A stretch of 64,000 bases of DNA from Echinicola arenosa (GTDB lineage Bacteria > Bacteroidota > Bacteroidia > Cytophagales > Cyclobacteriaceae). The notes below the pieces were generated by a model that saw nothing but the letters and a program-made list of their open reading frames with translations, made no database searches and had not been told where the DNA came from. Shown piece by piece: positions 1 to 16,082 of this stretch. The position numbers and the translations under genes are program-made. The stretch covers positions 1-64,000 of the forward strand of contig NZ_JACYTQ010000010.1 in the NCBI RefSeq assembly GCF_014841125.1, in the 5' to 3' direction. Within the stretch, counting starts at the first letter, position 1. Each line of letters begins with the position of its first letter.

Positions 1-123
1 GCCTTTCCAATGATGGTCTGGCTTTTTTTTCATAGCTTAAAATGTTAAAATTTACGATAAGGCTAATTTAGGAAGATCCGGACAATCATGCCGGCTTCCT
101 GCTTTAGCTGGATTCGTTCAACA
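1..123 (+). repeat. Direct repeat copy 1 (cut by window edge)
   Basis: This segment is nearly identical to 1424-1546, with only a few single-base differences and length changes in homopolymers (8 T here against 7 T in the other copy). Both copies end at the same CAAC core where an attC-like inverted repeat begins. It contains a small hairpin (CCGG...CCGG, 78-94). The left end may extend beyond the window. It looks like a conserved cassette-terminal sequence rather than a gene. Confidence 0.85.
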
Positions 124-248
124 CCGTGTATAGCTCATTGCGGCTGAATTCCTAATCGGAATTCATTGCAATTAACTATCTTTGGTCTACGGCAGGAAAG
201 AATCCTGCGGATTTTTCCGCAACAAGCCATACACAAAAACGTTGTAGC
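117..248 (+). other. attC-like imperfect inverted repeat A
   Basis: The left arm (CAAC, then GTGTATAGCTCATTGCGG, 119-143) pairs with the right arm 217-244, which ends in GTTG; the inner 18 bp match with about three mismatches. Inside the loop are smaller hairpins: GAATTCC/GGAATTC, GCAGGA/TCCTGC and GCGGA/TCCGC. A gene starts 12 nt after the right core (241-247). Opposing YAAC and GTT cores on a bulged long stem are the hallmark of integron attC sites; assignment to that class is inference, as no integrase is present. Confidence 0.6.
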
Positions 249-259
249 GCATTTGAAGA

Positions 260-664
260 ATGACCGAATTAATTTCAGCATATAAGTTTCAAGAAGACAA
301 AGAAGCAATTAAAAGATTGCAAGAAGTTTCTAGTGATCCAAAGTCCGATTATGGACTTAAAACGGAAAATGGACTTTTAATTGGCACTAAAGAATGGTTT
401 CGGGCAACTGAAGACGGTCGACTTTCAAAAGAGACAATAAGGGGGACAATTTCTAAGGTGTATATGTCTGGACATAATGACTGGCCAGAATTTGAAATGG
501 AAAATGAAAGTGGAAAATCGACTTGGACGAGAGAAGGGAACGACAAACTATATCAAGTCGATAAACTTGTTGAAATTGACTACGTGATTCAGAAATACAA
601 ACGTCCTTGGGATATGCTTGGCCCTACAACAAAAAAGGTGATTGAAATTAGAATTGAAAAATGA
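260..664 (+). CDS. Hypothetical protein (134 aa), cassette gene
   Basis: A small soluble protein with no signal peptide or membrane segment and no family I recognise. The middle is rich in charged residues and contains GTISKVYMSGH and a WTREGNDKLYQVDKLVEID stretch that looks like a compact beta-rich fold. The ATG lies 12 nt after the right core of attC-like site A, as expected for a cassette gene. It overlaps the next ORF by 4 nt (ATGA), so the two are probably translated together. Lower GC and A-rich codons distinguish it from the core genes further right. The role is unknown; small paired orphan genes of this kind are often toxin-antitoxin or defence cargo, but nothing here shows that. Confidence 0.65.
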   Translation: MTELISAYKFQEDKEAIKRLQEVSSDPKSDYGLKTENGLLIGTKEWFRATEDGRLSKETIRGTISKVYMSGHNDWPEFEMENESGKSTWTREGNDKLYQVDKLVEIDYVIQKYKRPWDMLGPTTKKVIEIRIEK

Positions 665-966
665 AAACAGAGACTGTAAATACAATTGTCCTTAATGAGA
701 ACAATGAGTTGATGTTAAAAATAACAGGAGAAGGAAACCCTTCTTATCAGTATGTTTATCGAGAAGCCGCAGGTGTATACTGGGACGAAAAAGAAAAGGG
801 TTTTAAGTCAACACCTTTAAGAGAATGGACAGTATCTAAATGGTTCTTCCATATCAAGGACATAGTAAAAATCGGTTTGAATTTGAGTTTAGAAATGGAT
901 AACAACATTACTTGGGAAAACATACCCACTGACGAACAAGAAAAAATTAAAAACGCGCTACAATAA
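661..966 (+). CDS. Hypothetical protein (101 aa), coupled to the 134-aa gene
   Basis: A small soluble orphan protein. It starts at an ATG overlapping the stop of the upstream gene (ATGA), indicating translational coupling. It has aromatic residues around YQYVYREAAGVYW and KWFFHIKDIVKIG and an acidic C-terminus (PTDEQEKIKNAL). No domain is recognised. The stop codon is followed directly by a dispersed repeat (965-1215). Together with the 134-aa gene it fills one cassette-like unit between site A and the next repeat block. Function is unknown; a two-component module is plausible from the overlap alone. Confidence 0.6.
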   Translation: MKTETVNTIVLNENNELMLKITGEGNPSYQYVYREAAGVYWDEKEKGFKSTPLREWTVSKWFFHIKDIVKIGLNLSLEMDNNITWENIPTDEQEKIKNALQ

Positions 967-1215
967 CTAAGCATTCTGACGGCTGGAACAGCCTAGTCTG
1001 AATGCAGTGTTGAACGAGTGGTGCTGTGAATGGGTTAAATTATGGGGAAAGCTATTTCCTCTTTTGTATTTTTGGAGGTTGGAGCTTGAAAAATCCGGTA
1101 CCTGAGCGGCGTTTTTGCCTGCTATTTGGTGGTGTTTAGGTTTTTCTTTGCCTGCTTTGTGGGCTTTGGAACAGCTTATGGGCTGTTTTTTGGTTTTTGG
1201 GCATAGGTTTCCCCT
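965..1215 (+). repeat. Dispersed repeat copy 1 in gene-free stretch 967-1720
   Basis: This stretch aligns with 4249-4495. Shared blocks include ATTCTGACGG.TGGAAC, CTGAATGCAGTG, ATGGGTTA and GGGAAA(A)GCT.TTTC, and later CTT.ATGG.C.GTT...GGTTTT.GG followed by TTCCCC or TGTCCCCC. In both places it directly follows the stop codon of a cassette gene. An ORF on the opposite strand (967-1455) spans it, but its Pro/Lys/Ser-rich translation looks non-coding. The remainder, 1216-1423, shows no gene. Confidence 0.65.
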
Positions 1216-1423
1216 TACACCGTTTGGTGTACCGACTGTTGTTTTCTGATTTTGTTCACCCAAAAGACTGGTGGCCCCCTTTGGTCGAAGCGTGCCACCG
1301 TATGCAGTGTGCCGGTCCTGCAGCATGGGCATTTCCTGAAGGGGGAAAGGGGCTTTTCGCTTTTTTTCAGGAGCACTTCTTAGCCTTTTGAACTGAAGGG
1401 CAAATCCCGGAACATTTTCAATG

Positions 1424-1546
1424 GCCCTTTCAATGATGGTCTGGCTTTTTTTCATAGCTTAAAATGTTTAAAATTTACGATAAGGCTAATTTAGGAAGAT
1501 CCGGACAATCATGCCGGCTTCCTGCTTTAGCTGGATTCGTTCAACA
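1424..1546 (+). repeat. Direct repeat copy 2
   Basis: Near-identical to 1-123 in the same orientation. It ends with TCAACA at the left core of attC-like site B, exactly as copy 1 ends at the left core of site A. The sequences diverge completely right after the core. That boundary is what cassette insertion next to a common end would produce. Confidence 0.85.
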
Positions 1547-1701
1547 AATGCTATGAATGAATGGGGTTTTATCGGTAAGGATACTGTTGTGGGGATTGGA
1601 AAGTCCACCACAAGTTTTAATTTTAAATCAAGGCGTGGCTATGTGCGAGACGAGAGGTTAGTGCTTTCTAATCCCCACCTCTTTATAGCTGGATGTTAGG
1701 C
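1540..1701 (+). other. attC-like imperfect inverted repeat B
   Basis: The left arm (CAAC then TGCTATGAATGAATGGGG, 1542-1566) pairs with the right arm CCCCACCTCTTTATAGC...GTTAGGC ending at 1701. The right core GTTAGGC (1695-1701) fits the integron core consensus GTTRRRY exactly. The arms enclose about 100 nt. The next gene begins 19 nt downstream. No integrase is visible, so the mobilising enzyme is unknown. Confidence 0.6.
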
Positions 1702-1720
1702 AAAATTTAAATCAACTAAT

Positions 1721-2281
1721 ATGGAAGAAATAATAAACTCACTTTTAGACAAACCACTCGCATTCATTATTACAATAGGTGGTATAATATTTTTAGGTTT
1801 ATCTGGAATTACAAAGGCTTTTAAAATTGAAGTTGATAGAAAAAACAGCATAAGACTTTTTTGGGCTGGACTGTCATTGCTAATTATTGGAATTCCAATC
1901 TATTATTTAGGTGACAACCAATTATCACCTGACTTAGATGTCAAGCTACTTAAAGTAGAGTTTTTTAAAAATGATGCTGGACATATTTGCGAGGAATCTT
2001 TAATACACATAAGAGAGACTTATCAGATTAAAAATGCAGAAGGAGAAAAATTTACAAAGGTTATTTTAAGTCAAGGTGGGATACATTCTCAAGATATAAT
2101 TTATCAAGATAAAAGTGGAAATTATGCAATAAACTATTGTTACAACCCAGATTTTGAAAGAACATTTAGAACTGTAATTATGTCCAGTTCAGGAAAGACA
2201 AGTAATATAATAAAATACAAAATATCTTCAGAAGATGTTTCTCAAATTCAAGAACAGGCGCCTCGCCTAGTGAGATATTAA
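1721..2281 (+). CDS. Membrane-anchored hypothetical protein (186 aa)
   Basis: Two hydrophobic segments (about residues 13-32 and 46-63) are separated by a basic loop (KAFKIEVDRKNSIR). A beta-rich domain of about 115 residues follows that would lie on one face of the membrane. I do not recognise the family. The gene starts 19 nt after the right core of attC-like site B and ends 6 nt before the left arm of site C, so it is the sole gene of one cassette-like unit. Composition is strongly A+T rich compared with the housekeeping genes, consistent with acquisition by transfer. Function unknown. Confidence 0.65.
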   Translation: MEEIINSLLDKPLAFIITIGGIIFLGLSGITKAFKIEVDRKNSIRLFWAGLSLLIIGIPIYYLGDNQLSPDLDVKLLKVEFFKNDAGHICEESLIHIRETYQIKNAEGEKFTKVILSQGGIHSQDIIYQDKSGNYAINYCYNPDFERTFRTVIMSSSGKTSNIIKYKISSEDVSQIQEQAPRLVRY

Positions 2282-2287
2282 AACTTT

Positions 2288-2380
2288 GGCTAACAAAAAT
2301 ATATTGCATTAGGCAAATAGTTCTAAATATGAAGTTTATAGCGCTTAATTGCCAAACGCAACATATTCAAACCGTTGTGT
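2288..2380 (+). other. attC-like imperfect inverted repeat C
   Basis: The left core GCTAAC (2289-2294) and arm AATATATTGC pair with GCAACATATT near 2358-2367; the right core is CCGTTGTGT (2372-2380). An inner GGCAA/TTGCC pair extends the stem. At about 93 bp it is in the size range of classical attC sites. The next ATG is 15 nt downstream. Confidence 0.6.
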
Positions 2381-2395
2381 ATAATTCCCTAAATC

Positions 2396-2875
2396 ATGAA
2401 AATAAAACTACTTTTACCTTTCCTGATTCTATTTACATCTTGTTGCAGCACTGAAAAAAAAGACAAGAATAATAATATTTCTGACCATGAAATAGCTTTA
2501 GTGCAAGAGGCTAATGATTACAAAATGGTATTAGACAACTTGACTAAAGTAAATCAAGAAAAACTTGATACAGGAAATGGAATGTTAGAAACCGAAAAGG
2601 CTTATTATTTCCAAATGGATAGCATGCTGAACGTTGTCTACAAAGACCTGATTAAATCGAACAACAAAACCAACTATGAAAAATTAAGGGAGCAACAGAG
2701 ACAATGGCTTAAGGAACGGGACATTTTTTTCCGAAATATCCAAGATGAATACCAGAAAGAATCAGGTGAAATTGGCTTTTTACCGAATGATTATAAATTA
2801 ATGGTATATGGAGAAAAATCTTCATTTGTAAAAGAAAGAGTCTTAGCTCTAATAAATTTACTAGAGGAAAAATAA
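2396..2875 (+). CDS. Lipoprotein with LprI/DUF1311-like C-terminal domain
   Basis: The N-terminus is a lipoprotein signal (KIKLLLPFLILFTSC, lipobox around Cys16-17) followed by a Lys/Asn-rich linker. The mature part contains MLETEKAYYFQMDSMLN and YEKLREQQRQWLKERD. A helix ending in Q-x-x-W-L-x-x-R-D is characteristic of the DUF1311/LprI family, small periplasmic proteins some of which inhibit lysozyme. Expected location is the periplasmic side of a membrane. It sits alone between attC-like site C and a repeat-containing gap, as one cassette cargo. The family call is by motif only; inhibitory function is not shown. Confidence 0.7.
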   Translation: MKIKLLLPFLILFTSCCSTEKKDKNNNISDHEIALVQEANDYKMVLDNLTKVNQEKLDTGNGMLETEKAYYFQMDSMLNVVYKDLIKSNNKTNYEKLREQQRQWLKERDIFFRNIQDEYQKESGEIGFLPNDYKLMVYGEKSSFVKERVLALINLLEEK

Positions 2876-2918
2876 CTATACATAGAAACTGAACATTCGT
2901 GTGGCTGGATCGATCAAG

Positions 2919-2936
2919 CCTGCCAAAGTGGACAGG
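2919..2936. repeat. Short dispersed palindrome, copy 1
   Basis: CCTGCCAAAGTGGACAGG is an imperfect palindrome (CCTG.CCA...TGG.CAGG) that occurs again, identical, at 4280-4297. Both copies lie in gene-free DNA downstream of cassette genes. It is a short repetitive hairpin element of unknown role. Confidence 0.7.
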
Positions 2937-3029
2937 TGGGCTGACGGCTTGCCGCGTGGTTTTTTCTCTTCTGCTATCTTTGGTCACAGCCGACAGTTTA
3001 GCGTTTGTAAAATCCGCCCAAAAGCTCAG

Positions 3030-3043
3030 TAGCAACGTTGTAG
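3030..3043 (+). other. Cassette-type right core D
   Basis: AGCAACGTTGTAGAAC resembles the right end of site A (AACGTTGTAGCGC): they share ACGTTGTAG. It lies 27 nt before the next gene. I could not pair a convincing left arm in 2876-2960, so only the core is claimed. Confidence 0.4.
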
Positions 3044-3070
3044 AACATTTAGGAAAATCCGAAATCTGAA

Positions 3071-3520
3071 TTGAAAAAAGAAACTTTAATAATAATTTCG
3101 ACTGTATTAATTTTACTGTCATTCTGGCTCGGAATGAAAGTTGAGCGTGAATTAGCAAGTTGGGACGAAATCGGAAAACCTGTATTTGAAAAGGAACAGA
3201 TTTACTTCCCTAATAAAAAAACCTCTCTTTATCTGAAAAGCAAAAATTGGGGATTGACTGCTGACCACAAAATTTCTGTGATTTCGACAAAGTCAGACCT
3301 TGAATTTCAACCTGACTCAATCTCTGAATATATTTTTCACGGATTTGGTGGAATAATTTACAAGATGGAAAATGACACTCTGAAAATTTATTCAACTCAA
3401 AAACCGAAAACACCACCGAAATTTGAATCAGATATAAACGTGGAAATAATAGAAATTAAGGATAATCTGGAGTGGATTAAACTAAATGACAAGATTAAAA
3501 ACGAATATCAAAAATTTTAA
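3071..3520 (+). CDS. Single-pass membrane hypothetical protein (149 aa)
   Basis: There is one N-terminal hydrophobic segment (LIIISTVLILLSFWLGM, about residues 5-21) and then a roughly 125-residue soluble domain with GTP-independent, unrecognised sequence. The segment has no cleavage site, so this is probably an N-in, C-out anchored protein. No ATG is available in frame upstream; the ORF opens with TTG at 3071, immediately before two lysine codons, which is the likely start. The gene follows core D and is followed 9 nt later by the left core of site E. A-rich, Lys/Ile-rich coding sequence suggests foreign origin. Function unknown. Confidence 0.6.
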   Translation: MKKETLIIISTVLILLSFWLGMKVERELASWDEIGKPVFEKEQIYFPNKKTSLYLKSKNWGLTADHKISVISTKSDLEFQPDSISEYIFHGFGGIIYKMENDTLKIYSTQKPKTPPKFESDINVEIIEIKDNLEWIKLNDKIKNEYQKF

Positions 3521-3529
3521 TAAAAAACG

Positions 3530-3659
3530 TTTTAACAATTTATAACCGCAATTACAGTAGATTCGACTACTTCCGAATCCACTCGGAATTGCTATCATAA
3601 GTTCTTAACCGAAGAAAAGTAATTTCCACCCAGCTGACGGTTATAGGATACCGTTAGAT
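3530..3659 (+). other. attC-like imperfect inverted repeat E
   Basis: The left core TTTTAAC (3530-3536) and arm TTTATAACCG pair with CGGTTATAGG and the right core CGTTAGAT (3652-3659). GTTAGAT fits the GTTRRRY integron consensus. The right core overlaps the ATG of the following gene, the tightest core-to-start distance in the array. Confidence 0.6.
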
Positions 3660-4245
3660 GCCACCAGAAGATAAAATGCGACTGCGGAAAATATTGATAG
3701 AACTTCACTTGACTACTTTAACGATAGCGATTTTGAATGCAATTATTAAATCGTTGACAGCATACAGTCTTGGAGGAAACATAGCGTTTGGAATTAAGGT
3801 TTTAGCGGTTATCAGTGGACTGATACTTTTCTTTTTCTATTTGAAACCATTTAAGAAAATAACCCTCTATTTCTCGATTTACCCATTAATTGGAGTTTTG
3901 TCGATGCTCGGACTAATTTTTCGTGGAATAGTTTGGGCATTAGTTTTATCAGTAGTCTTATTTCCGTTGATTCCTGACGAAAAAGAATTTGAGGAAAACG
4001 AAATTATCATCTCGACTCCGTTTCAAGGATTTATGGCACCTTGCTGCCCATACGAAATTAAGGAACGACAATTACTGATACTTGAGAAAAATTACGGAAA
4101 ATGGGAATTAGAAGGAGAAGGTCCAATTGACTTTGAAACAGTAGAGATTAGTTCTAACGACAACGAAATCGAAATAACCTACTCGACTAACTTTGATGAA
4201 GGAGTGATTAAGAAAAAGAAAATAAATAAATACGGTAATAACTAA
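3658..4245 (+). CDS. Multi-pass membrane hypothetical protein (195 aa)
   Basis: Three or four hydrophobic segments lie between residues about 15 and 115 (for example VLAVISGLILFFFYL and IVWALVLSVVLFPLI), followed by an acidic soluble tail of about 80 residues with a CCPYE motif near residue 129. No family is recognised. The first ATG (3658) overlaps the right core of site E; a second in-frame ATG at 3676 is a reasonable alternative start. It is the only gene in its cassette-like unit and is followed by the dispersed repeat at 4249. Function unknown. Confidence 0.6.
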   Translation: MPPEDKMRLRKILIELHLTTLTIAILNAIIKSLTAYSLGGNIAFGIKVLAVISGLILFFFYLKPFKKITLYFSIYPLIGVLSMLGLIFRGIVWALVLSVVLFPLIPDEKEFEENEIIISTPFQGFMAPCCPYEIKERQLLILEKNYGKWELEGEGPIDFETVEISSNDNEIEITYSTNFDEGVIKKKKINKYGNN

Positions 4246-4248
4246 ACT

Positions 4249-4495
4249 ACTAATTATTCTGACGGTTGGAACTGCCAACCCTGCCAAAGTGGACAGGCAG
4301 GCCTAACCTTTGTCAGGCAAACCTGAATGCAGTGCGGAACGAATTGTTGCTGGAAATGGGTTAGTTCTGGGAAAAGCTTTTTCTTTTTTATTTTTCGTGG
4401 TTTGTTGATGGTTTTTTCGGAGCTTTGTTTTTTTACTTTGATACTGCTTTATGGACGGTTGTTTTGGTTTTGGAGTGAAGTGTCCCCCTAAGCTC
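4249..4495 (+). repeat. Dispersed repeat copy 2 in gene-free stretch 4246-4620
   Basis: Diverged copy of 965-1215. This copy carries an extra ~40-bp insertion that includes the short palindrome at 4280-4297. The shared features are the same order of blocks beginning ATTCTGACGG and ending in a run of C after TGT/TTT. As with copy 1, it starts directly after the stop of a cassette gene. The rest of the gap (4496-4620) holds only core F. Confidence 0.65.
4280..4297. repeat. Short dispersed palindrome, copy 2
   Basis: Identical to 2919-2936. Here it is followed by CAGGC, extending the pairing with the preceding GCCAACCCTG, and lies within the insertion that distinguishes this repeat copy from 965-1215. 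Confidence 0.7.
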
Positions 4496-4570
4496 TGCTG
4501 TCCCCATATCCACTCGCTATTGCCAAGATTAGCCCTAAACCCAAAATTACTATCTTTAATCTTGTAACAA

Positions 4571-4580
4571 GCGGTTATGC
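4571..4580 (+). other. Cassette-type right core F
   Basis: GCGGTTATGC contains GTTATGC, matching the GTTRTGY form seen at site C. It precedes the serine-hydrolase gene by 16 nt (TTG) or 40 nt (ATG). I did not find a clear left arm. It may mark the right end of the cassette-like island. Confidence 0.35.
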
Positions 4581-4620
4581 GAGACCACTTTTACAATTGA
4601 GAAAACCACATTCCTGTATC

Positions 4621-5667
4621 ATGACAAAGAAAAAAACAAAGCTATTCCTGCGGATGATATTTATTATGGCGTCCATAGCGTCCTTATTCTTTGTTCCATG
4701 GCTCTTGGTCAAGGCGTGGATACTTCCACTGCCTGATACTGTTCAGGAACAGGTAGAAGAAGCTATCGGCCATGGGTTTGAAGGAATGATTGTTTATGTG
4801 GACCAAACGGGTAAACCCCCTCAGTACTTTGCTTCTGGTTGGCATAATCGAGAATCCAAGATCCCTGCCAATCCAAAGGCATTATTTAAAATTGCCAGCA
4901 TTAGCAAGCTATATGATGCCGTGGCGGTTACCAAATTGGTCAGTGATGGGCGGCTTTCTCTAGATAAAACCATCGCCGATTATTTGCCTAATCTTAAGGG
5001 AAGAATCGAAAACGCTGACAAAATCACTTTGAGGTTGATGATACAGCATAGAAGTGGCATTCCCAATTTTACAGATGTTCCCAACTTTTGGGCTGCACCA
5101 ACGGAGACTTATGAGGGAAGTCTTGCATTGATCCTGGACAAGCCAGCCAACTTTGAACCCGGAGAAGACTATGAATATTGTAATACCAATTATCTTCTCA
5201 TTGGTAAGATAATGGATGATGTGCTGGGTTATGGTCACTTTCAGTTCGTTCAGGAAAGAATTCTAGCCCCGCTAAACCTAAACCATACTTATGGTTCACT
5301 CAGTGAAGTGAATATGGACAGTGTGATGAGTGGCTATCATGTAGGCCATCCCTTTGATTTAAAAGGAGACGACTATGGCATGTTGGCGACAGCAGAAGAT
5401 GTAGGCACTTTTCTGAGAGCATTGAATGATGGATCATTGTTTGAACAGGGAGAACAGGAAATATATGCTTCCATTTATGAGTATAAACATGCAGGTTGGG
5501 TTCCGGGATACCAAAGTTTTGCAGCATACCACAAAGACCTTGATGCGGTTATTGTCGAGTTCTATAGTACCACTGATCCTAAACTGTACAATTGGAACTT
5601 GTCAGAAATCATCAACAACAGAATTGTGAAAATTCTGAAAAGACACAAAAGCAAAAAACAAAGTTAA
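4621..5667 (+). CDS. Serine hydrolase of the beta-lactamase / PBP4* fold
   Basis: A membrane-anchored or exported protein: a basic start (MTKKKTK) is followed by a hydrophobic segment (FIMASIASLFFVPWLL). The active-site signature is S-I-S-K in KIASISKLY (about residue 98), the second element is Y-C-N in YEYCNTNY (about residue 195), and HAGWVPGYQS near the C-terminus stands in for the KTG box. This is the class C beta-lactamase / D-aminopeptidase / esterase EstB superfamily, PF00144. The family includes penicillin-binding proteins, esterases and peptidases; substrate cannot be told. The ORF can open at TTG 4597, but ATG 4621 gives the better signal sequence. It may be the last member of the cassette-like island or the first gene outside it. 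Confidence 0.85.
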   Translation: MTKKKTKLFLRMIFIMASIASLFFVPWLLVKAWILPLPDTVQEQVEEAIGHGFEGMIVYVDQTGKPPQYFASGWHNRESKIPANPKALFKIASISKLYDAVAVTKLVSDGRLSLDKTIADYLPNLKGRIENADKITLRLMIQHRSGIPNFTDVPNFWAAPTETYEGSLALILDKPANFEPGEDYEYCNTNYLLIGKIMDDVLGYGHFQFVQERILAPLNLNHTYGSLSEVNMDSVMSGYHVGHPFDLKGDDYGMLATAEDVGTFLRALNDGSLFEQGEQEIYASIYEYKHAGWVPGYQSFAAYHKDLDAVIVEFYSTTDPKLYNWNLSEIINNRIVKILKRHKSKKQS

Positions 5668-6103
5668 CCTGTACGCTTTATAGCCAAGATGGTTTACAAA
5701 AGTTCAGTGCTTTTAACAGCACCGCCTTATGGTTGATTTAGTTCGTAGAATATCAATTTTATGGAAGCTCATGAAATTACATATGGCTTTTATGAATGAT
5801 CAGTTTAAAAATCTGATTATCCGCTTTGATGCCAGTAACCATACATCCATTGCTCAAGTGGTCGGAAGCCTGTCTAACTGCCAGATAGATCTGAAGACCA
5901 AAGCAGTTGATACTTTAATCAAAAGGGTATTTTCTACTCGCTTTTAATCTTTACTGGTAGAATTGCGGATATACAAATTTAAAAATGAACACGGCGTTTT
6001 GGCTCAGCGCATACTTCAAAGATTATTGCTTCTGAAAAAAGATCTGCTAAAGATTTTCTAAAACTGGGGTAAAGTTCGTATTTTCACTGCTTTATTTTTT
6101 AAA
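5668..6103. other. Gene-poor stretch upstream of acnB
   Basis: A 72-codon ORF opens at 5729, but its central part coincides with a repeat also present at 9049-9135 and 9266-9380, where the frame is broken. It is therefore likely a degenerate element, not a working gene. The final 100 nt presumably carries the acnB promoter; no clear TAnnTTTG box was found. Confidence 0.5.
5809..5915 (+). repeat. acnB-flanking repeat, copy 1
   Basis: It shares CTGATTATCCGCT.TGATGCC, AGTAACCAT.CATCC, CAAGTGGTC.GAAGCC and CTGAAGACC with 9266-9380. Its frame reads IIRFDASNHTSIAQVVGSLS. In the 9266 copy the same frame gives IIRYDASNHASFVQVVRSLS before a stop, so the element may derive from a small coding sequence. 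Confidence 0.8.
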
Positions 6104-6130
6104 ATGAGTTCTTCTAGAAAAGATAAAAAC

Positions 6131-8932
6131 ATGAGTACATATAGCGAATATTTAAAACAGATTGTTGATAGAGAAGCCCAAGGGCTTCACCCTTTACCTA
6201 TTGATGGAGCCGAATTGCTCAGTGAAATCATTGAACAAATCAAAGATGAAAATCACGAGCATAGAAAGGATTCCCTTAATTTCTTTATTTATAATGTGTT
6301 GCCCGGTACTACAAGTGCTGCAAGTGTAAAGGCTCAGTTTTTAAAAGAGATCATTCTCGGTAAATCAGTTGTAAAAGAAATATCACCTTCCTTTGCTTTC
6401 GAACAATTATCGCACATGAAAGGAGGGCCTTCCATAGATGTGTTATTGGATTTGGCCTTAGGCACGGATCAGGTTATAGCTGAAGAAGCCGCAAATGTTT
6501 TGAAAACGCAAGTTTTCTTGTACGAGGCTGATATGGAGCGCTTAGAAAATGCATTCAAAAAGGGCAGCCCAATTGCGAAAGAGCTGTTGGAAAGCTACGC
6601 CAAAGCAGAATTTTTCACCCAATTACCCGAAGTAGAGGAAGAAATAAAAGTAGTAACCTTTGTAGCCGGAGTGGGCGATATTTCTACCGATTTGCTCTCA
6701 CCAGGTAAAGAAGCGCATTCAAGAGCAGACAGAGAGCTGCATGGTCAATGTATGTTTGAATTTGATGAAGTAAGGCAAAAGGAACTACTGGAATTAAAAG
6801 AAGCCCACCCTGATAAAAGAGTAATGCTATTGGCCGAAAAAGGCACAATGGGTGTAGGCTCTTCAAGAATGTCTGGGGTAAACAATGTTGCCCTGTGGAT
6901 TGGAAAACAAGCAAGCCCTTACGTTCCATATATCAATATTGCTCCTATTGTTGCAGGAACAAATGGCATATCCCCTATTTTCTTAACTACTGTTGGCGTT
7001 ACAGGTGGTATTGGTTTAGATTTGAAAAACTGGGTAAAACAGGTTGATGATGAGGGTAACCTGATCGTGGATGAAAATGGTGACCCTATATTAAAACAAA
7101 CCTATTCTGTTGATACGGGAACCGTTCTTACAATTAATACAAAAACCAAAAAGCTATACGATAGTGAGGGCGAAGAGCTGATTGATATAGCTTCTGCCCT
7201 AACTCCTCAGAAAATGGAGTTCATAAGAGCCAAAGGATCTTATGCCGTTGTTTTCGGTAAAAAGCTACAAACTTTTGCAGCCAATACATTAGGAATCGAT
7301 GTGCCTCCTGTTTATGCTCCTTCCAAAGAGGTTACGCATAAAGGTCAGGGACTTACAGCTGTAGAAAAAATATTTAACAAAAATGCAGTTGGTACTTCCG
7401 GAGCAACTCTACACGCAGGATCCTACGTTCGGGTCAATGTAAATATTGTAGGTTCGCAAGATACGACAGGATTGATGACTTCACAGGAGTTAGAGATGAT
7501 GGCCGCTACGGTAATTTCACCAATTGTTGATGCCGGATATCAATCAGGTTGCCATACGGCCTCTGTCTGGGATTTGAAAGCACAAGCGAATACCCCCAGA
7601 TTAATGAAATTTATGAACGACTTTGGATTAATTACCGGTCGTGATCCTAAAGAAGTTTATCATCCATTAACTGATGTAATCCATAAAGTACTTAACGATA
7701 TTACTATTGATGATTGGGCGATTATCATTGGAGGTGATTCCCATACAAGAATGTCAAAAGGAGTAGCTTTTGGTGCAGATTCAGGTACGGTAGCGCTTGC
7801 TTTAGCTACTGGTGAAGCATCCATGTCCATTCCGGAATCTGTAAAAGTAACTTTTAAGGGAAAAATGGCAGACTCCATGGATTTCCGTGATGTAGTTCAC
7901 GCCACACAGGCACAGATGCTCAAGCATTTTAAGGGGGAAAATGTATTTCAAGGTAGAATTATAGAAGTACATATTGGTACCCTGCTTGCAGACCAGGCAT
8001 TTACCTTTACGGATTGGACGGCCGAAATGAAAGCAAAAGCATCTATTTGTATTTCACAACCTGATACGCTTATTCAGTCTTTAGAAATAGCCAAGAGCCG
8101 AATCAAAATAATGATTGAAAAAGGCATGGACAATGAAAAGCAGGTGCTTCAAAGTCTTATAGACAAAGCAAATAAAAGGATTGATGAGATTAAGTCTGGC
8201 GAAAAACCACCGTTGGCTCCCGACGAAAATGCTAAATATTATGCAGAATTTGAGGTTGACTTAGATATCATTGATGAACCGATGATTGCTGACCCGGATG
8301 TAAATAATGAAGATGTTTCCAGGCGATACACTCACGACACTATTCGGGAATTATCTTACTATGGTGGTGATAAAATTGTCGATCTTGGTTTTGTTGGCTC
8401 TTGTATGGTTCACAAAGGGGATATTAAGATCGTAGCCAAAATGTTGAAAAACTTGGAAGAATTATACGGTAAAGTAGAATTCAAGGCACCACTTGTAGTA
8501 GCCGCTCCAACCTATAATATCATTGAGGAGCTAAAAGAAGAAGGTGATTGGGAAATATTGGAGAAATACTCCGGTTTTGAGTTTAATGATACCGATCCAA
8601 AAACTACTGCTCGTACAGAATACGAAAATATATTGTATTTGGAGCGTCCTGGGTGCAACCTTTGCATGGGTAACCAAGAAAAAGCAGAAAAAGGAGATAC
8701 GGTTATGGCTACTTCCACTCGCTTATTTCAAGGGCGGGTTGTAGCAGATTCTGAACGTAAGAAAGGAGAATCTTTATTGGCTTCAACTCCAGTTGTAGTA
8801 CTGTCTGCTATTCTCGGAAGAATACCAACAATAGAAGAGTATAAATATGCCGTGAAAGATATTAAGCTGACTCAGTTTGCCCCACCACTTGGTAAAATGA
8901 CGACCAAGCCTGGGCATTTACTTTCCTTTTAG
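6131..8932 (+). CDS. acnB: Aconitate hydratase B (2-methylisocitrate dehydratase type)
   Basis: Converts citrate to isocitrate via cis-aconitate in the TCA cycle using a [4Fe-4S] cluster; AcnB enzymes can also dehydrate 2-methylisocitrate. The N-terminal 150 residues form the HEAT-like helical domain specific to AcnB (MSTYSEYLKQIV...GLHPLPIDG), followed by the swivelling domain and the catalytic core. The catalytic core contains GGDSHTR, and the cluster cysteines are in GSCMVHKGD and GCNLCMGNQ (residues 767, 851, 854 counted from the upstream ATG at 6104). About 930 aa against 865 in E. coli. ATG 6131 matches the usual AcnB start; ATG 6104 would add nine residues. It stands alone, flanked by copies of a ~100-bp repeat. 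Cytosolic. Confidence 0.97.
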   Translation: MSTYSEYLKQIVDREAQGLHPLPIDGAELLSEIIEQIKDENHEHRKDSLNFFIYNVLPGTTSAASVKAQFLKEIILGKSVVKEISPSFAFEQLSHMKGGPSIDVLLDLALGTDQVIAEEAANVLKTQVFLYEADMERLENAFKKGSPIAKELLESYAKAEFFTQLPEVEEEIKVVTFVAGVGDISTDLLSPGKEAHSRADRELHGQCMFEFDEVRQKELLELKEAHPDKRVMLLAEKGTMGVGSSRMSGVNNVALWIGKQASPYVPYINIAPIVAGTNGISPIFLTTVGVTGGIGLDLKNWVKQVDDEGNLIVDENGDPILKQTYSVDTGTVLTINTKTKKLYDSEGEELIDIASALTPQKMEFIRAKGSYAVVFGKKLQTFAANTLGIDVPPVYAPSKEVTHKGQGLTAVEKIFNKNAVGTSGATLHAGSYVRVNVNIVGSQDTTGLMTSQELEMMAATVISPIVDAGYQSGCHTASVWDLKAQANTPRLMKFMNDFGLITGRDPKEVYHPLTDVIHKVLNDITIDDWAIIIGGDSHTRMSKGVAFGADSGTVALALATGEASMSIPESVKVTFKGKMADSMDFRDVVHATQAQMLKHFKGENVFQGRIIEVHIGTLLADQAFTFTDWTAEMKAKASICISQPDTLIQSLEIAKSRIKIMIEKGMDNEKQVLQSLIDKANKRIDEIKSGEKPPLAPDENAKYYAEFEVDLDIIDEPMIADPDVNNEDVSRRYTHDTIRELSYYGGDKIVDLGFVGSCMVHKGDIKIVAKMLKNLEELYGKVEFKAPLVVAAPTYNIIEELKEEGDWEILEKYSGFEFNDTDPKTTARTEYENILYLERPGCNLCMGNQEKAEKGDTVMATSTRLFQGRVVADSERKKGESLLASTPVVVLSAILGRIPTIEEYKYAVKDIKLTQFAPPLGKMTTKPGHLLSF

Positions 8933-9913: not shown

Positions 9914-10708
9914 ATGGAACAAGAAATTAATTTCAATAAGGATTTAACAGGCAAGATAGCTCTGGTAACAGGAGGTACAAAAGGAACAGGAGAAGCGATT
10001 GCGGCAAGGCTATCCGAAGCAGGAGCCAGTGTTATCATCACGGCAAGAAATCCACCTAAGCAACGCGGTCAAATGACACATTTTATATCTGCAGATTTAA
10101 GCACAGCTACAGGTACAAAAAAAGTAGTCGAAGAAGTATTGTCCAAATATGGAAGGCTGGACATTTTAGTAAATAACCTGGGCGGTTCTGAAACCACCGG
10201 TGGTGGATTTGCTGTACTGACAGATGAAGACTGGGAACAATCTCTTCAGACCAATCTACTTGCACCGGTCCGTTTGGACAGAGGGTTTTTACCATCAATG
10301 GTGGCACAGCAAAGTGGTGTGATTGTGCATATAGCATCCATCCAAGGAAGGTTACCCTTGCACGACTCCACGCTACCTTACGCTGCAGCGAAAGCAGGAT
10401 TAATCAACTACAGCAAAGGTTTGTCCAAAGAAGTTTCACCAAAAGGTGTGAGGGTTTTGACCGTATCACCAGGTTGGATAATGACATCATCTGCAGAAAG
10501 AATGATTGAGCGACTTTCAGAAAGCTCCCGCATAACAAAAGATCAAGCAACAAAAAACGTGATGGAAGCATTGGGAGGAATCCCTTACGGCAAGCCTGCA
10601 CTACCCAAGGAAGTTGCTGATTTGGTTGGCTTTTTGGTTTCTCCCAGCGCCAATTATCTGACAGGTACCGAATTTATAATCGATGGAGGAACTATCCCGA
10701 CCATCTAA
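9914..10708 (+). CDS. SDR-family oxidoreductase
   Basis: A classical short-chain dehydrogenase/reductase of 264 aa. The NAD(P) motif TGGTKGTG is near residues 19-26, NNLGG follows at about 90-94, and the catalytic Ser and YxxxK appear in IASIQGRL...PYAAAKAGL. The C-terminus has VSPGWIMT and the usual LTGTEFIIDGG ending. The lysine after TGG and the arginine in TARNPP suggest NADP(H). The substrate is unknown; FabG-like homologues reduce ketones. It is divergent from the HxlR regulator and followed 22 nt later by a SnoaL-like gene, an arrangement common for detoxification or small-molecule modification modules. Confidence 0.93.
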   Translation: MEQEINFNKDLTGKIALVTGGTKGTGEAIAARLSEAGASVIITARNPPKQRGQMTHFISADLSTATGTKKVVEEVLSKYGRLDILVNNLGGSETTGGGFAVLTDEDWEQSLQTNLLAPVRLDRGFLPSMVAQQSGVIVHIASIQGRLPLHDSTLPYAAAKAGLINYSKGLSKEVSPKGVRVLTVSPGWIMTSSAERMIERLSESSRITKDQATKNVMEALGGIPYGKPALPKEVADLVGFLVSPSANYLTGTEFIIDGGTIPTI

Positions 10709-10730
10709 TAATCATCTAAAAATAAAGAAC

Positions 10731-11045
10731 ATGAACTTACCAAATGTAGTGAACGAATTAGTGAAAGCGCAAGACAATTTTGATAGCAAAGCTTATGCAG
10801 ATTGTTTTGCTGAAACAGCCATTGTTTTTGATGAAGGAAAAACATATCACGGAAAAAAGGAAATAGAGAACTGGATAGATAAGGCTAATCGAGAATATCA
10901 GGTTACGATGAAACCGCTGGAATATTTGGAAAAAGCCCAGATCTTAAAAGCGGAAGTTTCAGGAGCCTTTCCCGGAAGTCCACTTGTTTTGACCTATCAA
11001 TATGAATTTGAGGACAAGCTGATTAAATCACTGAAAATTGTATAA
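10731..11045 (+). CDS. SnoaL-like / NTF2-fold protein
   Basis: A 104-aa protein with the layout of the SnoaL-like polyketide cyclase / NTF2 superfamily: an N-terminal helix (VVNELVKAQDNFDSKAYADC), then FAETAIVFDEGKTYHGKKEIENW and a beta-rich C-terminal half. These alpha+beta cone proteins bind small hydrophobic ligands; many have no known reaction. The open frame extends upstream to 10683 into the SDR gene, but ATG 10731 fits the fold. It is co-transcribed with the SDR gene and presumably under HxlR control. The final 'LIKSLKIV' ends abruptly at the last strand, normal for this family. Confidence 0.8.
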   Translation: MNLPNVVNELVKAQDNFDSKAYADCFAETAIVFDEGKTYHGKKEIENWIDKANREYQVTMKPLEYLEKAQILKAEVSGAFPGSPLVLTYQYEFEDKLIKSLKIV

Positions 11046-11397
11046 AGAAGGGAGCCATTGGGGAAAGCGCGTATGCATCACTGGCAGTTTTGGCCATTGA
11101 AGCATACGTGTTAACCTTGGTGATCTCTTCTCTTGAAAGTATTTTTTGTGCAAAAGACTGATACCTTACTTGGGACTAGTGTCCAACCAAAACCTTTGTT
11201 GCCTGTTTTTATCCATCGAGTGCACCCTGAATTTTTTTTCATCACTAAAACTGACATGACAACTGGTATAGAAGTGTCTCTTTCATTTTACTTGAAGGTT
11301 TGTGCTTATAATTCAGTAACTTAATCAGCAAACAGAGGGCTTCTAAAGTATTAAAAGTTTTTTTAAGCTTATTGGCAAAGATCTAAAACAATAGGAT
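11046..11397. other. Gene-free stretch
   Basis: A 63-codon ORF at 11133 lacks any coding character. A weak hairpin with arms CGTATGC and GCATACG (about 11070-11107) could end the SDR operon, but no T-run follows. I see nothing else. Confidence 0.4.
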
Positions 11398-14672: not shown

Positions 14673-16031
14673 ATGGGGGCATCAAAAGAGAAAACATACA
14701 CCGAGGGAAAGATCATTACCGCATTGACACAATTGGCTATTCCGATTATTTTGGCCAATGTATTGCAGACCGCCTATCAGTTGATTGATACCTTCTGGCT
14801 GGGGCGTCTTGGTGCCAATGCTGTGGCAGCGGTGAGTATCAGTTTTCCCATCCTATTTTTGATCCTTTCATTAGGGGCTGGGTTGACTTTGGCCGGGACT
14901 GTCTTTGTGTCCCAGCATAAGGGAGCCAATGACCAATCTAAAGTAAATTATGCTTCCTCACAGACAGTGATTGTGGTATTTGTGGTGTCTGTATTTTTGG
15001 CGTTGATTGGTTATTTCTCTGCAGGTCCATTGATGAGATTGATTGGTGCTGGGCCAGAGGTGCTGTCAGATTCGGTATCCTACTTTAAAGTGTCCGCATT
15101 GGGCTTTGTCTTTCTCTTTATGTTTTTTGTCTTCCAGTCTTTGATGCGTGGCATTGGTAATGTCCTGTTGCCTGTCTATGTGATTCTGGTGACGGTCTTT
15201 TTGAATTTGATTTTGGATCCCCTATTTATTTATGGTTTTGGACCTGTTCCTGGATTTGGGGTGTCAGGAGCTGCTGTGGCCAGTGTAATCACACAGGGTT
15301 TGTCCGCGGTGGCCGGAATGTATATTCTTTGGAAGGGAAAACATGGGATTAGAATTCATTTTTCAGAAATGAAATTTGATTGGCCATGGACCAAGAAGCT
15401 CTTTCAGTTAGGTTTGCCCTCCAGTATGGAACAGTCTGCCCGGGCTTTAGGCATGACCATGATGGTGGTTTTGGTAACCAGTTTTGGCAGTGAAGTAGTG
15501 GCAGCCTATGGTATTGGGGCGAGGATTTTGAGTTTTGTGATTATTCCTGCTTTGGGTTTGGCCATTGCGACCACCACTTTGGTGGGGCAGAATATCGGTG
15601 CCCGCAAGACCAAAAGAGCTGAGAAGACTGGGTTCTTAAGTACTAAGATTGCTTTTTTTGGTTTGACGGGAATAGGAGCTTTGCTCTTTGTTTTTGCCGA
15701 AAACCTGGTTCGTTTTTTTGTGCCCAATGAACCACAGGTAATTCATGATGGGGCTTTGTTTATCAAAATTATGGGGCCTAGTTTTGGTTTTTTGGGGGTA
15801 CAGCAAGTGATCAATGGCACCTTTAATGGAGCTGGTTTTACGAAAGCGTCCATGTTTATCTCTTTTTTGAACCTTTGGATCATCAGGTTTCCCTTGGGAT
15901 ATTACTTGGCCTATCATACGAGTTTAGCGCATGAAGGAATTTATTGGGCCTTCCCTATCTCCAACTGGATTTCTGCCACAGTTGCCTTTGTCTATTTCAA
16001 AATGGGCTATTGGAAAAAGCGCTTAATTTAG
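14673..16031 (+). CDS. MATE-family multidrug/cation efflux transporter
   Basis: About 452 aa with twelve predicted membrane helices arranged as two MatE halves. The first half has LAIPIILANVLQTAYQLIDTFWLGRLGANAVAAVS, the standard MATE opening; the second has LGLPSSMEQSARALG and GQNIGARKTKRA. These inner-membrane proteins export organic cations or drugs in exchange for Na+ or H+. The frame opens upstream with TTG 14613, but ATG 14673 (MGASKEKTYTEGK) directly precedes the conserved region and lies 15 nt behind a -7 box. The neighbouring helicase gene begins 51 nt after its stop, probably with its own promoter. Confidence 0.95.
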   Translation: MGASKEKTYTEGKIITALTQLAIPIILANVLQTAYQLIDTFWLGRLGANAVAAVSISFPILFLILSLGAGLTLAGTVFVSQHKGANDQSKVNYASSQTVIVVFVVSVFLALIGYFSAGPLMRLIGAGPEVLSDSVSYFKVSALGFVFLFMFFVFQSLMRGIGNVLLPVYVILVTVFLNLILDPLFIYGFGPVPGFGVSGAAVASVITQGLSAVAGMYILWKGKHGIRIHFSEMKFDWPWTKKLFQLGLPSSMEQSARALGMTMMVVLVTSFGSEVVAAYGIGARILSFVIIPALGLAIATTTLVGQNIGARKTKRAEKTGFLSTKIAFFGLTGIGALLFVFAENLVRFFVPNEPQVIHDGALFIKIMGPSFGFLGVQQVINGTFNGAGFTKASMFISFLNLWIIRFPLGYYLAYHTSLAHEGIYWAFPISNWISATVAFVYFKMGYWKKRLI

Positions 16032-16071
16032 TTTGGCTAGTAGGCAGGTGCCTTCAGCTGATAAAAAATAG

Positions 16072-16079
16072 TACATTTG
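16072..16079 (+). promoter_or_regulatory. -7 promoter box immediately before the helicase gene
   Basis: TACATTTG fits TAnnTTTG. The ATG at 16083 is only 3 nt beyond it, so a transcript from this box would have almost no leader. Alternatively, the match is by chance. Confidence 0.4.
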
Positions 16080-16082
16080 CCT

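What the first reader, a model, noticed from the sequence alone, without database searches (positions are those of the whole stretch)
1..4620. Integron-like cassette array without a visible integrase
Six small orphan genes or gene pairs (260, 1721, 2396, 3071, 3658, 4597/4621) each begin between 0 and about 30 nt (about 40 nt for the last, counting its ATG) after a GTTRRRY/GTTRTGY-like core. Four of these cores end a long imperfect inverted repeat that opens with a YAAC-like core: 117-248, 1540-1701, 2288-2380 and 3530-3659. The loops differ in sequence but keep the opposed-core geometry. Seen directly: the paired arms, the regular core-to-start spacing, the orphan, A+T-rich cargo, all on one strand. 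Known: this is how attC sites and gene cassettes are built. Inference: a cassette system, possibly a Bacteroidota-specific type of attC, mobilised by an enzyme encoded elsewhere.
Basis: partly seen in the sequence, partly recalled or inferred. Interest (0 to 1): 0.8.

Follow-up and report, generated by a model that had tools for sequence, protein, structure and literature searches.

The report
Bacteroidota integron with unusual integrase
The window holds the far end of a mobile gene-cassette array, part of an integron-like gene-capture system that appears widespread in the phylum Bacteroidota and seems to be driven by an enzyme outside the known integron-integrase family.

Summary
A covariance model built only from other genomes finds all four named hairpins at the stated bounds (E 1e-12, 2e-7, 6e-5, 0.2). 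A congener (G143) has the same locus: left flank matching our contig C12 end, an intact 462-aa integrase, an insertion site, a largely different array, the same aconitase gene. Here little more than that integrase's C-terminal end remains. So the window is the distal end of an integron-like array whose integrase has decayed.

In 20 loci fetched by integrase match, 90 sites lie downstream of the integrase and 5 upstream. Each cassette's end core mirrors its start core in 56 of 68 pairs. Close relatives diverge at the attI core in all four pairs compared. Sites occur in 151 of 296 sampled genomes of the phylum and 0 of 15 from other phyla.

It works like an integron, but the integrase lacks the IntI-specific domain, falls outside the IntI clade, mostly carries a HARP-like N-terminal domain, and has attI on its 3' side. 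Recombination itself was not tested.

The parts
1..122 (+). right end of a copy of the ~580-bp ORF-less element (ends GTTCAAC at 116-122); contig C2 starts inside this repeat
   Evidence: 100% identical to 1468-1546 over 45-123; also at C6:1-143, 96% and in G143
116..247 (+). attC-like site 1 (R'' GTTCAAC, R' GTTGTAG at 241-247); bottom strand is the predicted folded strand
   Evidence: R1 64.9 bits, E 1.1e-12; fold z -5.8
260..966 (+). cassette genes 260-664 and 661-966; the second matches Pfam PF18287, 'Integron Cassette Protein Hfx_Cass5'
   Evidence: PF18287 26 bits over a cut-off of 25; starts 12 nt after the core
964..1545 (+). ORF-less inserted element: begins with a GCATTC...GAATGC hairpin right after the cassette's own R'' (CTACAA at 958-963) and ends GTTCAAC (1539-1545)
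   Evidence: direct repeats; copies or ends in C6, C19 and G143; boundaries read from the sequence
1539..1701 (+). attC-like site 2 (R' GTTAGGC at 1695-1701)
   Evidence: R1 30.9 bits, E 6.2e-5
1721..2281 (+). cassette gene, 186 aa, no Pfam match up to E 0.1
   Evidence: starts 19 nt after the core
2288..2380 (+). attC-like site 3 (R'' GGCTAAC, 6 of 7 complementary to the previous R'; R' GTTGTGT)
   Evidence: R1 41.9 bits, E 1.9e-7
2396..2875 (+). cassette gene, LprI-like (PF07007)
   Evidence: 31 bits over a cut-off of 22
2877..3043 (+). decayed attC-like region ending in core GTTGTAG (3037-3043)
   Evidence: read from sequence; detector score 20, below threshold; not found by R1; shared with G143 from 2883 on
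3071..3520 (+). cassette gene (TTG start), shared with G143 at the same place
   Evidence: 94.5% DNA identity over window 2883-3814
3530..3659 (+). attC-like site 4 (R' GTTAGAT at 3653-3659)
   Evidence: R1 E 0.22, weak; G143 homologue E 0.05; fold z -3.3
3658..4245 (+). cassette gene whose ATG overlaps the core; its 3' part is missing in G143
4249..4382 (+). decayed copy of the ORF-less element's left end / attC-like hairpin
   Evidence: 66-80% identical to the other copies
4574..4580 (+). R'-like core GTTATGC before the last gene
   Evidence: read
4621..5667 (+). serine hydrolase of beta-lactamase fold (PF00144), possible last cassette gene; no attC found after it
   Evidence: its homologue in congener G139 lies between two R1 sites, one of them a partial match
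6104..8932 (+). flanking aconitase gene (name recalled), right border of the locus, syntenic in G143
   Evidence: 99% aa identity in G143; matched in 2 of 11 genus genomes at E 1e-100, this one included

Best explanation
Window 1 to about 4600 (perhaps to 5667) is the distal end of a gene-cassette array belonging to a Bacteroidota integron-like system. In that system a tyrosine integrase gene is followed, typically 45-150 bp after its stop codon, by an attI site. Cassettes are inserted after it, one behind the other, in the same direction as the integrase. Each cassette is [GTT core - short leader - gene - R'' - hairpin], and its attC site (often about 131 bp) is recognised as a folded bottom strand. 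The crossover lies at the GTT of the R' core, so the R'' of each cassette stays complementary to the core at its own start. Most integrases carry one to three HARP-like N-terminal domains and none tested has the IntI additional domain. I propose that the HARP-like domain reads the folded single-strand/duplex junction. In this genome the integrase of the locus (C12 end) is mostly deleted, so the array is now a fossil (CALIN-like), while the congener keeps an intact one. Shown by comparison: array, site structure, core breakpoints, attI position, decay here. Inferred: that this integrase performs the recombination, that single-stranded bottom DNA is the substrate, the role of HARP, and the physical link C12-C2.
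For: Own-genome sites found by a model trained on other genomes. In 20 loci (19 genomes) fetched by integrase match, 90 sites downstream in 134,726 bp against 5 upstream in 196,163 bp; 17 of 20 loci have at least one downstream. Chain rule R''(n) = rc R'(n-1): 56 of 68 pairs in 17 loci, own R' 6 of 68, shuffled mean 4.0 (max 11), within-locus shuffles mean 16.0 (max 30). The first site's R'' predicts a 7-nt attI core 3' of the integrase in 20 of 24 loci (16 of them 45-143 nt from the stop; about 2 expected by chance). Four of four pairs of close relatives are alike up to the attI GTT and then differ. A 920-bp cassette shared by two genera at 93.5% starts and stops at cores; an identical 570-bp cassette recurs at three unit positions in one array. 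Structure: 89.6% of cells paired against 66.4% shuffled; covariation score 0.587 against 0.197; a G-T pair in 50 of 50 that would be A-C on the other strand. G143 locus intact. Independent laboratory hint: in Riemerella (Bacteroidota) a gene with its 27-bp leader and 140-bp attC-like 3' part integrates without homology, enzyme unidentified (PMC13148043, section 11 read).
Against: No recombination was observed. In the window itself the chain rule is blurred: one exact pair (1009-1015 with 1539-1545, the ends of the ORF-less element), one 6 of 7, the rest interrupted or decayed; C6 has one exact pair. Site 2 does not fold better on the bottom strand and site 4 is weak alone. My detector selects for paired arms, so the pairing statistics of A2 are partly built in, and one measure is weak: 15 of 19 pairs change on both sides, but shuffles give 12.4. 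Four of 24 loci lack the predicted attI 7-mer, and one of the 20 matches (L068 at +3528) is probably chance. Only one of 85 cassettes compared was shared between genomes. 50 of 53 family genomes with an N-terminal-integrase match have sites, but so do 53 of 65 without, so that query does not pair enzyme and sites. Three of the 20 loci show no site downstream. The link C12-C2 rests on synteny with one congener, not on assembly.
Confidence: 0.9

Rival explanations
1. An ordinary CALIN: cassettes of a classical integron (IntI with its additional domain) that was lost, captured from elsewhere.
For: R boxes and chain rule are the classical ones; canonical controls show the same rule (3 of 4, 2 of 5, 4 of 4 pairs). 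One gene matches an 'integron cassette protein' family. NCBI's model NF040815, named 'site-specific tyrosine recombinase/integron integrase', is passed by 5 of 8 relatives' integrases.
Against: No TIGR02249 match over the cut-off in this genome. 8 of 8 relatives' integrases tested score under that cut-off in two stretches; G143's intact integrase at this locus has XerD-like spacing (65 aa). R1 finds nothing in two genomes with apparent canonical integrons. In three canonical controls with upstream sequence held, the array is upstream of the integrase; against this, one IntI locus at a contig edge (L147) has four sites downstream.
Confidence: 0.06
2. The hairpins are mobilised by the host XerC/XerD (both present) or by the IS91-linked short integrases, and the long integrase is a bystander.
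For: XerC and XerD are present. IS91 units with a 269-278-aa integrase sit in several arrays and roughly obey the core rule. Sites occur in 53 of 65 family genomes without an N-terminal match.
Against: Xer-like proteins rang in all 14 control genomes, yet sites were absent in the 15 non-Bacteroidota genomes tried. Sites cluster 3' of the long integrase, and attI cores lie mostly 45-143 nt from its stop. In the stretches of L059, L063, L064, L077 and L078 no second integrase was found by tblastn.
Confidence: 0.07
3. The repeats are not recombination sites but terminators, IS ends or other spreading hairpins, with genes fixed between them.
For: Some repeats here are mobile-element ends (ORF-less element, IS91 ends, IS110 copies).
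Against: The chain rule, core-to-core cassette sharing between genera and divergence at attI cores have no reason to exist for terminators.
Confidence: 0.03

Closest known systems
Integrons (IntI class; sedentary chromosomal integrons, CALINs)
   Same: RYYYAAC/GTTRRRY-type boxes, palindromic attC with variable loop, attI, same-direction cassettes, R''-R' complementarity within a cassette, a cassette shared between genera, group II intron and IS insertion at attC
   Different: Integrase outside the 100/100 IntI clade, without the IntI additional domain, mostly with an N-terminal HARP-like domain; attI and array 3' of the integrase and in the same direction, a layout also seen in one canonical IntI locus here (L147) and recalled for a few canonical integrons; attC type not matched in two genomes with apparent canonical integrons
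XerA / archaeal XerC-like recombinases (PDB 5hxy, 4a8e; NCBIfam NF040815)
   Same: best sequence and fold relatives of the catalytic part
   Different: single recombinases, not known for arrays (recalled); no HARP-like domain in the two archaeal rows tested, L112 and L119
Homology-independent integration in Riemerella anatipestifer (PMC13148043)
   Same: Bacteroidota; gene with 27-bp leader and 140-bp attC-like 3' part inserted as a unit (section 11 read)
   Different: no integrase, attI or array identified in the text I read
SMARCAL1 HARP domain (PDB 4o66) and Pfam DUF5710
   Same: N-terminal profile matches 4o66 at E 9e-6; single domains match DUF5710 (6 of 20, best 9e-6) and HARP (5 of 20, best 8e-5)
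   Different: HARP is known from a eukaryotic repair helicase, not a recombinase; its fork-DNA binding is recalled, not read here

Membership tests
Integron (IntI class) | IntI tyrosine recombinase with the IntI-specific additional domain near patch III | tested here: not met
   IntI 2a3v aligns at 9-183 and 243-320 only: 59 IntI residues against 16 profile positions. KGxxR-to-LRHS spacing is 59-65 aa where measured, against 83-102 aa in six canonical IntIs measured. IntI is one clade, 13 of 13 rows, 100/100, excluding all 37 rows of the Bacteroidota group.
Integron (IntI class) | attC sites: R''/R' boxes at the ends of an imperfect palindrome with variable loop | tested here: met
   window sites by model
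Integron (IntI class) | bottom strand folds better (strand-selective site) | tested here: met
   44 of 50 training sites; window 3 of 4, of which 3530-3659 by only 0.5 kcal/mol
Integron (IntI class) | attI next to the integrase gene, with crossover at GTT | tested here: met
   predicted core in 20 of 24 loci; four pairs diverge at the core. But it is 3' of the gene, not 5'.
Integron (IntI class) | tandem cassettes in one direction, promoter-less | tested here: inconclusive
   57 of 62 cassette ORFs in array direction, ATG a median 24 nt after the core; promoters were not tested
Integron (IntI class) | integrase-mediated attI x attC recombination | not testable with these tools
   needs an assay
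CALIN (at least two attC under 4 kb apart, no integrase beside them) | clustered attC, no functional integrase adjacent | tested here: met
   four sites in 3.5 kb; integrase of the locus mostly deleted at the C12 end. IntegronFinder itself was not available.
HARP domain (PF07443) | Pfam gathering score | tested here: inconclusive
   5 of 20 domains match, best E 8e-5, 22.6 bits under the cut-off of 25; DUF5710 matches 6 of 20, best 9e-6; PDB profile match to 4o66 E 9e-6

The most novel reading that the evidence does not exclude
Bacteroidota carry a second, phylum-wide lineage of integrons that has gone largely unrecognised. Its integrases split from IntI and never had, or lost, the domain held essential for integron function. 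They read the folded attC hairpin instead with a HARP-like N-terminal domain of the kind found in fork-remodelling helicases, and take cassettes in on the 3' side of their own gene.
Probability: 0.55. Interest if true: 0.95.

Novelty: new variant of a known kind. Interest (0 to 1): 0.9.

Why it matters
Reviews list Bacteroidota among phyla with integrons (PMC8618304, PMC2426708, passages), but a large survey reports only array-less integrases earlier and then one complete integron in Salinibacter (PMC9024848, passage). Here about half of the sampled genomes of the phylum carry matching sites (151 of 296), and 103 of 118 of this family. If the integrase is confirmed, this is a gene-capture system in a major environmental and host-associated phylum that IntI-based searches would probably miss. 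It would show that folded attC can be read without the IntI domain, making the origin of integrons testable, and would offer a mechanism for the homology-independent uptake seen in Riemerella. Among 56 cassette proteins scanned, single hits include restriction and defence-like families, superoxide dismutase and a lincosamide-nucleotidyltransferase-like protein.

Tried and rejected
Rfam has no match in the window at gathering scores. PADLOC finds nothing up to E 0.01 in the ten own cassette proteins scanned. TIGR02249 alone is useless as a marker: it also matches in 14 of 14 control genomes, below its cut-off. I first read the second integrase in several arrays as a cassette-borne integrase; it proved to be part of an IS91-like unit. 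I first counted the hairpin at 964-1012 as an ordinary attC; its copies show it is the left end of an inserted ORF-less element. Integrase presence by the N-terminal query does not separate genomes with and without sites. Hydrolase loci in the genus did not give the syntenic locus; the aconitase gene did. A separate structure of the HARP-like domain could not be obtained. IntegronFinder and HattCI are not among the tools. Of 57 cassette ORFs listed, one IS91 transposase (L076:9668-10720) was dropped before the family scans.

Literature: ten searches of an open-licence PMC library listed no paper that I recognised as describing this system. Subscription papers and preprints are not held, so 'not in print' is not shown. 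Seen as passages only: PMC8618304, PMC9668308, PMC9024848, PMC2426708, PMC8138268, PMC7858055, PMC8352920, PMC5458099, PMC5331189. PMC13148043: passages and section 11. PMC4889954 was not held.

Full report
OBSERVATION. The window is the start of contig C2 of an unnamed 5.39-Mb genome in 20 contigs. The phylum is taken as Bacteroidota from named relatives of its genes; no call names the host. An independent detector finds the four named sites at 116-247, 1539-1701, 2288-2380 and 3530-3659, against a mean of 0.4 in 30 shuffles of the same 4620 bases and four hits in the other 58 kb. The genes start 0-40 nt after a GTT core, all on one strand.

THE ENZYME. This genome has no integron integrase over the NCBIfam cut-off. 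It has XerD, XerC and fragments of another tyrosine integrase at C15:1-420, C12:562929, C12:1093690 and C19:66801. Searching 118 family genomes with the N-terminal fragment gave matches in 53, mostly in open frames of 365-575 aa. My detector then found 90 sites downstream of the integrase in 134,726 bp and 5 upstream in 196,163 bp; 17 of 20 loci have at least one downstream, L071, L073 and L074 none. Arrays of 7-12 sites occur in L059, L063, L064, L069, L076, L077 and L078.

CASSETTE LOGIC. In neighbouring sites the first four bases of R'' match the reverse complement of the R' of the preceding site in 56 of 68 pairs (17 loci), against 6 of 68 for the R' of the same site, 4.0 on average after shuffling (max 11 in 2000) and 16.0 (max 30) after shuffling within loci. 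This is what insertion at the R' core produces, because a cassette's two core ends meet in its circle. The rule predicts the attI core from the first site's R''. The predicted 7-mer lies 3' of the integrase in 20 of 24 loci, 16 of them 45-143 nt after the stop; about 2 chance hits were expected. I put in 24 loci that have a downstream site; L087, L089, L092, L100, L118 and the non-Bacteroidota loci were not put in. L068 matches only at +3528, probably by chance; its leader shows GTTGTGC where L059 has its attI. L060, L061 and L065 miss by one base, with GTTGAAC at 74-104 nt; L080 misses.

BREAKPOINTS. Close relatives are alike through the integrase end and leader up to GTT, then differ: L059/L068, L060/L083, L074/L077 and this genome's C12 end against G143. 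Among 85 cassettes compared, one 920-bp cassette is shared between genomes (two genera, 93.5%), with homology starting and ending at cores; an identical 570-bp cassette stands at three unit positions in L064, two adjacent and one apart. Of 69 chain-rule cassettes, 62 have an ORF of at least 50 aa, 57 in array direction, ATG a median of 24 nt after the core and within 60 nt in 45 of 57.

SITE STRUCTURE. Fifty sites from relatives and named Bacteroidota were aligned on the bottom strand; two are from congener G047, none from this genome or G143. Standard pairs fill 89.6% of cells (66.4% shuffled, 29.8-49.5% slid); the covariation score is 0.587 (0.197 shuffled); 15 of 19 pairs change on both sides, though shuffles give 12.4. 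One pair is G-T in 50 of 50, which would be A-C on the top strand. The bottom strand is more stable in 44 of 50. Because the detector chose paired arms, part of this is built in; the chain rule, attI and clustering results do not follow from that choice.

THE MODEL ON THIS GENOME. R1 finds all four window sites at exact bounds (E 1.1e-12, 6.2e-5, 1.9e-7, 0.22) and four on C6 (best 2.8e-18), and nothing else up to E 1 in 196 kb. Over the whole genome 11 matches reach E 1: seven are C6 and C2 sites, among them the best five; four lie elsewhere (C12:15984 at 5e-4, others weaker); 3530-3659 is not listed.

DISTRIBUTION. R1 gives sites in 103 of 118 family genomes at E 1e-3 with 28 candidates scored per genome, in 11 of 11 genus genomes and in 151 of 296 genomes of the phylum at E 1e-4 with only 11 candidates scored per genome. 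Named: Winogradskyella ursingii 31, Flavobacteriaceae S0862 51, Aquiflexum TKW24L 9, Adhaeribacter terrigena 5, Pontibacter 2; 0 in the 15 non-Bacteroidota genomes put in, among them Pseudoalteromonas and Halieaceae with canonical-looking integrons. In those two and in a Calditrichia MAG five sites lie upstream of the integrase, the classical divergent layout; but L147, an acidobacterial IntI with 75 bp upstream held, has four sites 2.1-3.7 kb downstream. A same-direction layout is also recalled for a few canonical integrons, so it is not diagnostic alone.

NOT AN INTI. 8 of 8 integrases tested score 199-231 bits against a cut-off of 265 for TIGR02249, in two stretches; 5 of 8 pass NF040815, an archaeal-XerA model whose name includes 'integron integrase'. 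Against IntI 2a3v the profile aligns at 9-183 and 243-320, leaving 59 IntI residues opposite 16 positions. The KGxxR-to-LRHS spacing is 59-65 aa where measured, 68 in XerD, 83-102 in six canonical IntIs. In a 68-row tree IntI is one clade (13 of 13, 100/100) without any of the 37 rows of the Bacteroidota group (one an unplaced MAG), whose own monophyly is not resolved. The predicted structure (pLDDT 80.5, pTM 0.52) is closest to XerA, an archaeal Xer and IntI. The text seen in PMC8138268 calls the IntI insertion not fully conserved in its subgroup but essential for integron function.

HARP-LIKE DOMAIN. The N-terminal ~80 residues, repeated up to three times, match the SMARCAL1 HARP domain structure 4o66 (E 9e-6, next hit 0.19). 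In Pfam, DUF5710 matches 6 of 20 domains (best 9e-6) and HARP 5 of 20 (best 8e-5, below its cut-off). A profile of the domain is found in 17 of 20 family loci (biased, since they were fetched with an N-terminal query), 17 of 19 named Bacteroidota rows, 0 of 13 IntI, 0 of 2 own Xer and 0 of 4 IS91-linked integrases; one Bacillota MAG (L101) also has it, and many positives were in the training alignment. HARP binding of forked DNA is recalled. A junction-reading domain would suit an enzyme of folded single strands; this is inference.

THE WINDOW'S LOCUS. Of 11 genus genomes only G143 shares the flanking aconitase gene (99% aa identity). There the order is: left flank, 92% identical to 8.7 kb at the end of our C12; an intact 462-aa integrase; attI; about ten other genes, two IS110 copies among them, with five R1 sites; the cassette with gene 3071 and the counterpart of site 3530-3659 (94.5%); aconitase. 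G143 lacks window 3815-5968, so the hydrolase too. In our genome about 1.2 kb of the integrase is replaced by about 110 bp; its first ~55 bp and C-terminal end remain, then attI with another first unit. C6 ends and C2 begins in the same repeated element, so an order C12 - ... - C6 - C2 is likely but not assembled. The array here is therefore the fossil end of an integron that keeps its integrase in the congener.

MOBILE ELEMENTS IN THE ARRAYS. A group II intron interrupts a C6 site. IS110-family transposase genes start 257 nt after a core in two places in G143, and IS91-type transposases with a short integrase sit in several arrays. A ~580-bp ORF-less element ends at four different attC hairpins (window 122 and 1545, C6:122, G143). 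Classical integrons are known hosts of attC-targeting introns and IS elements (recalled).

PRIOR KNOWLEDGE. The passages seen list Bacteroidota among phyla with integrons, report array-less integrases plus one Salinibacter integron, no Bacteroidetes among 11 taxon attC models, and one 2026 paper with an attC-like integration in Riemerella without an enzyme. Ten searches listed nothing that I recognised as this system.

Noticed in passing
window 964-1545 and 1-122; C6:1-122; C19:72105 (left end); L195:14044-14378: A ~580-bp ORF-less element with hairpin left end (GCATTC...GAATGC) and GTTCAAC right end has inserted at attC R'' boxes; homology between the four right ends seen stops right after GTTCAACA.
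   Followed up: partly
L017:1577-1923 (contig C6), minus strand: Group II intron pieces (Rfam RF02001, RF01998) inside what looks like the R'' of an attC site, like the attC-targeting group II introns of classical integrons (recalled).
   Followed up: partly
L195:7425-8789 and 10002-11366: Two IS110-family transposase genes with the same translation each start 257 nt after an R' core in G143's array, resembling IS elements known to target attC (recalled).
   Followed up: partly
L060:8200-10612 and 14765-17177; L061, L062, L065, L076: IS91-type transposase plus a 269-278-aa tyrosine integrase forms a unit bounded by GTTGAAC ... GTTCAAC/GTCCAAC whose end hairpin resembles attC; in L060, L061, L062 and L065 it is the first unit after the long integrase.
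   Followed up: partly
L018:1-420 (C15 start) and L024:8770-8990 (C12 end): Two decayed copies of integrase C-terminus plus attI in this genome, both at contig ends next to an IS91-like start.
   Followed up: partly
window 6104-8932: The aconitase gene beside the array is 99% identical in G143 but not matched (E 1e-100) in 9 of 11 genus genomes searched, so it may itself be mobile.
   Followed up: no
G049:C3:305117-388362: R1 sites spread over about 83 kb of one contig suggest a very large array.
   Followed up: no
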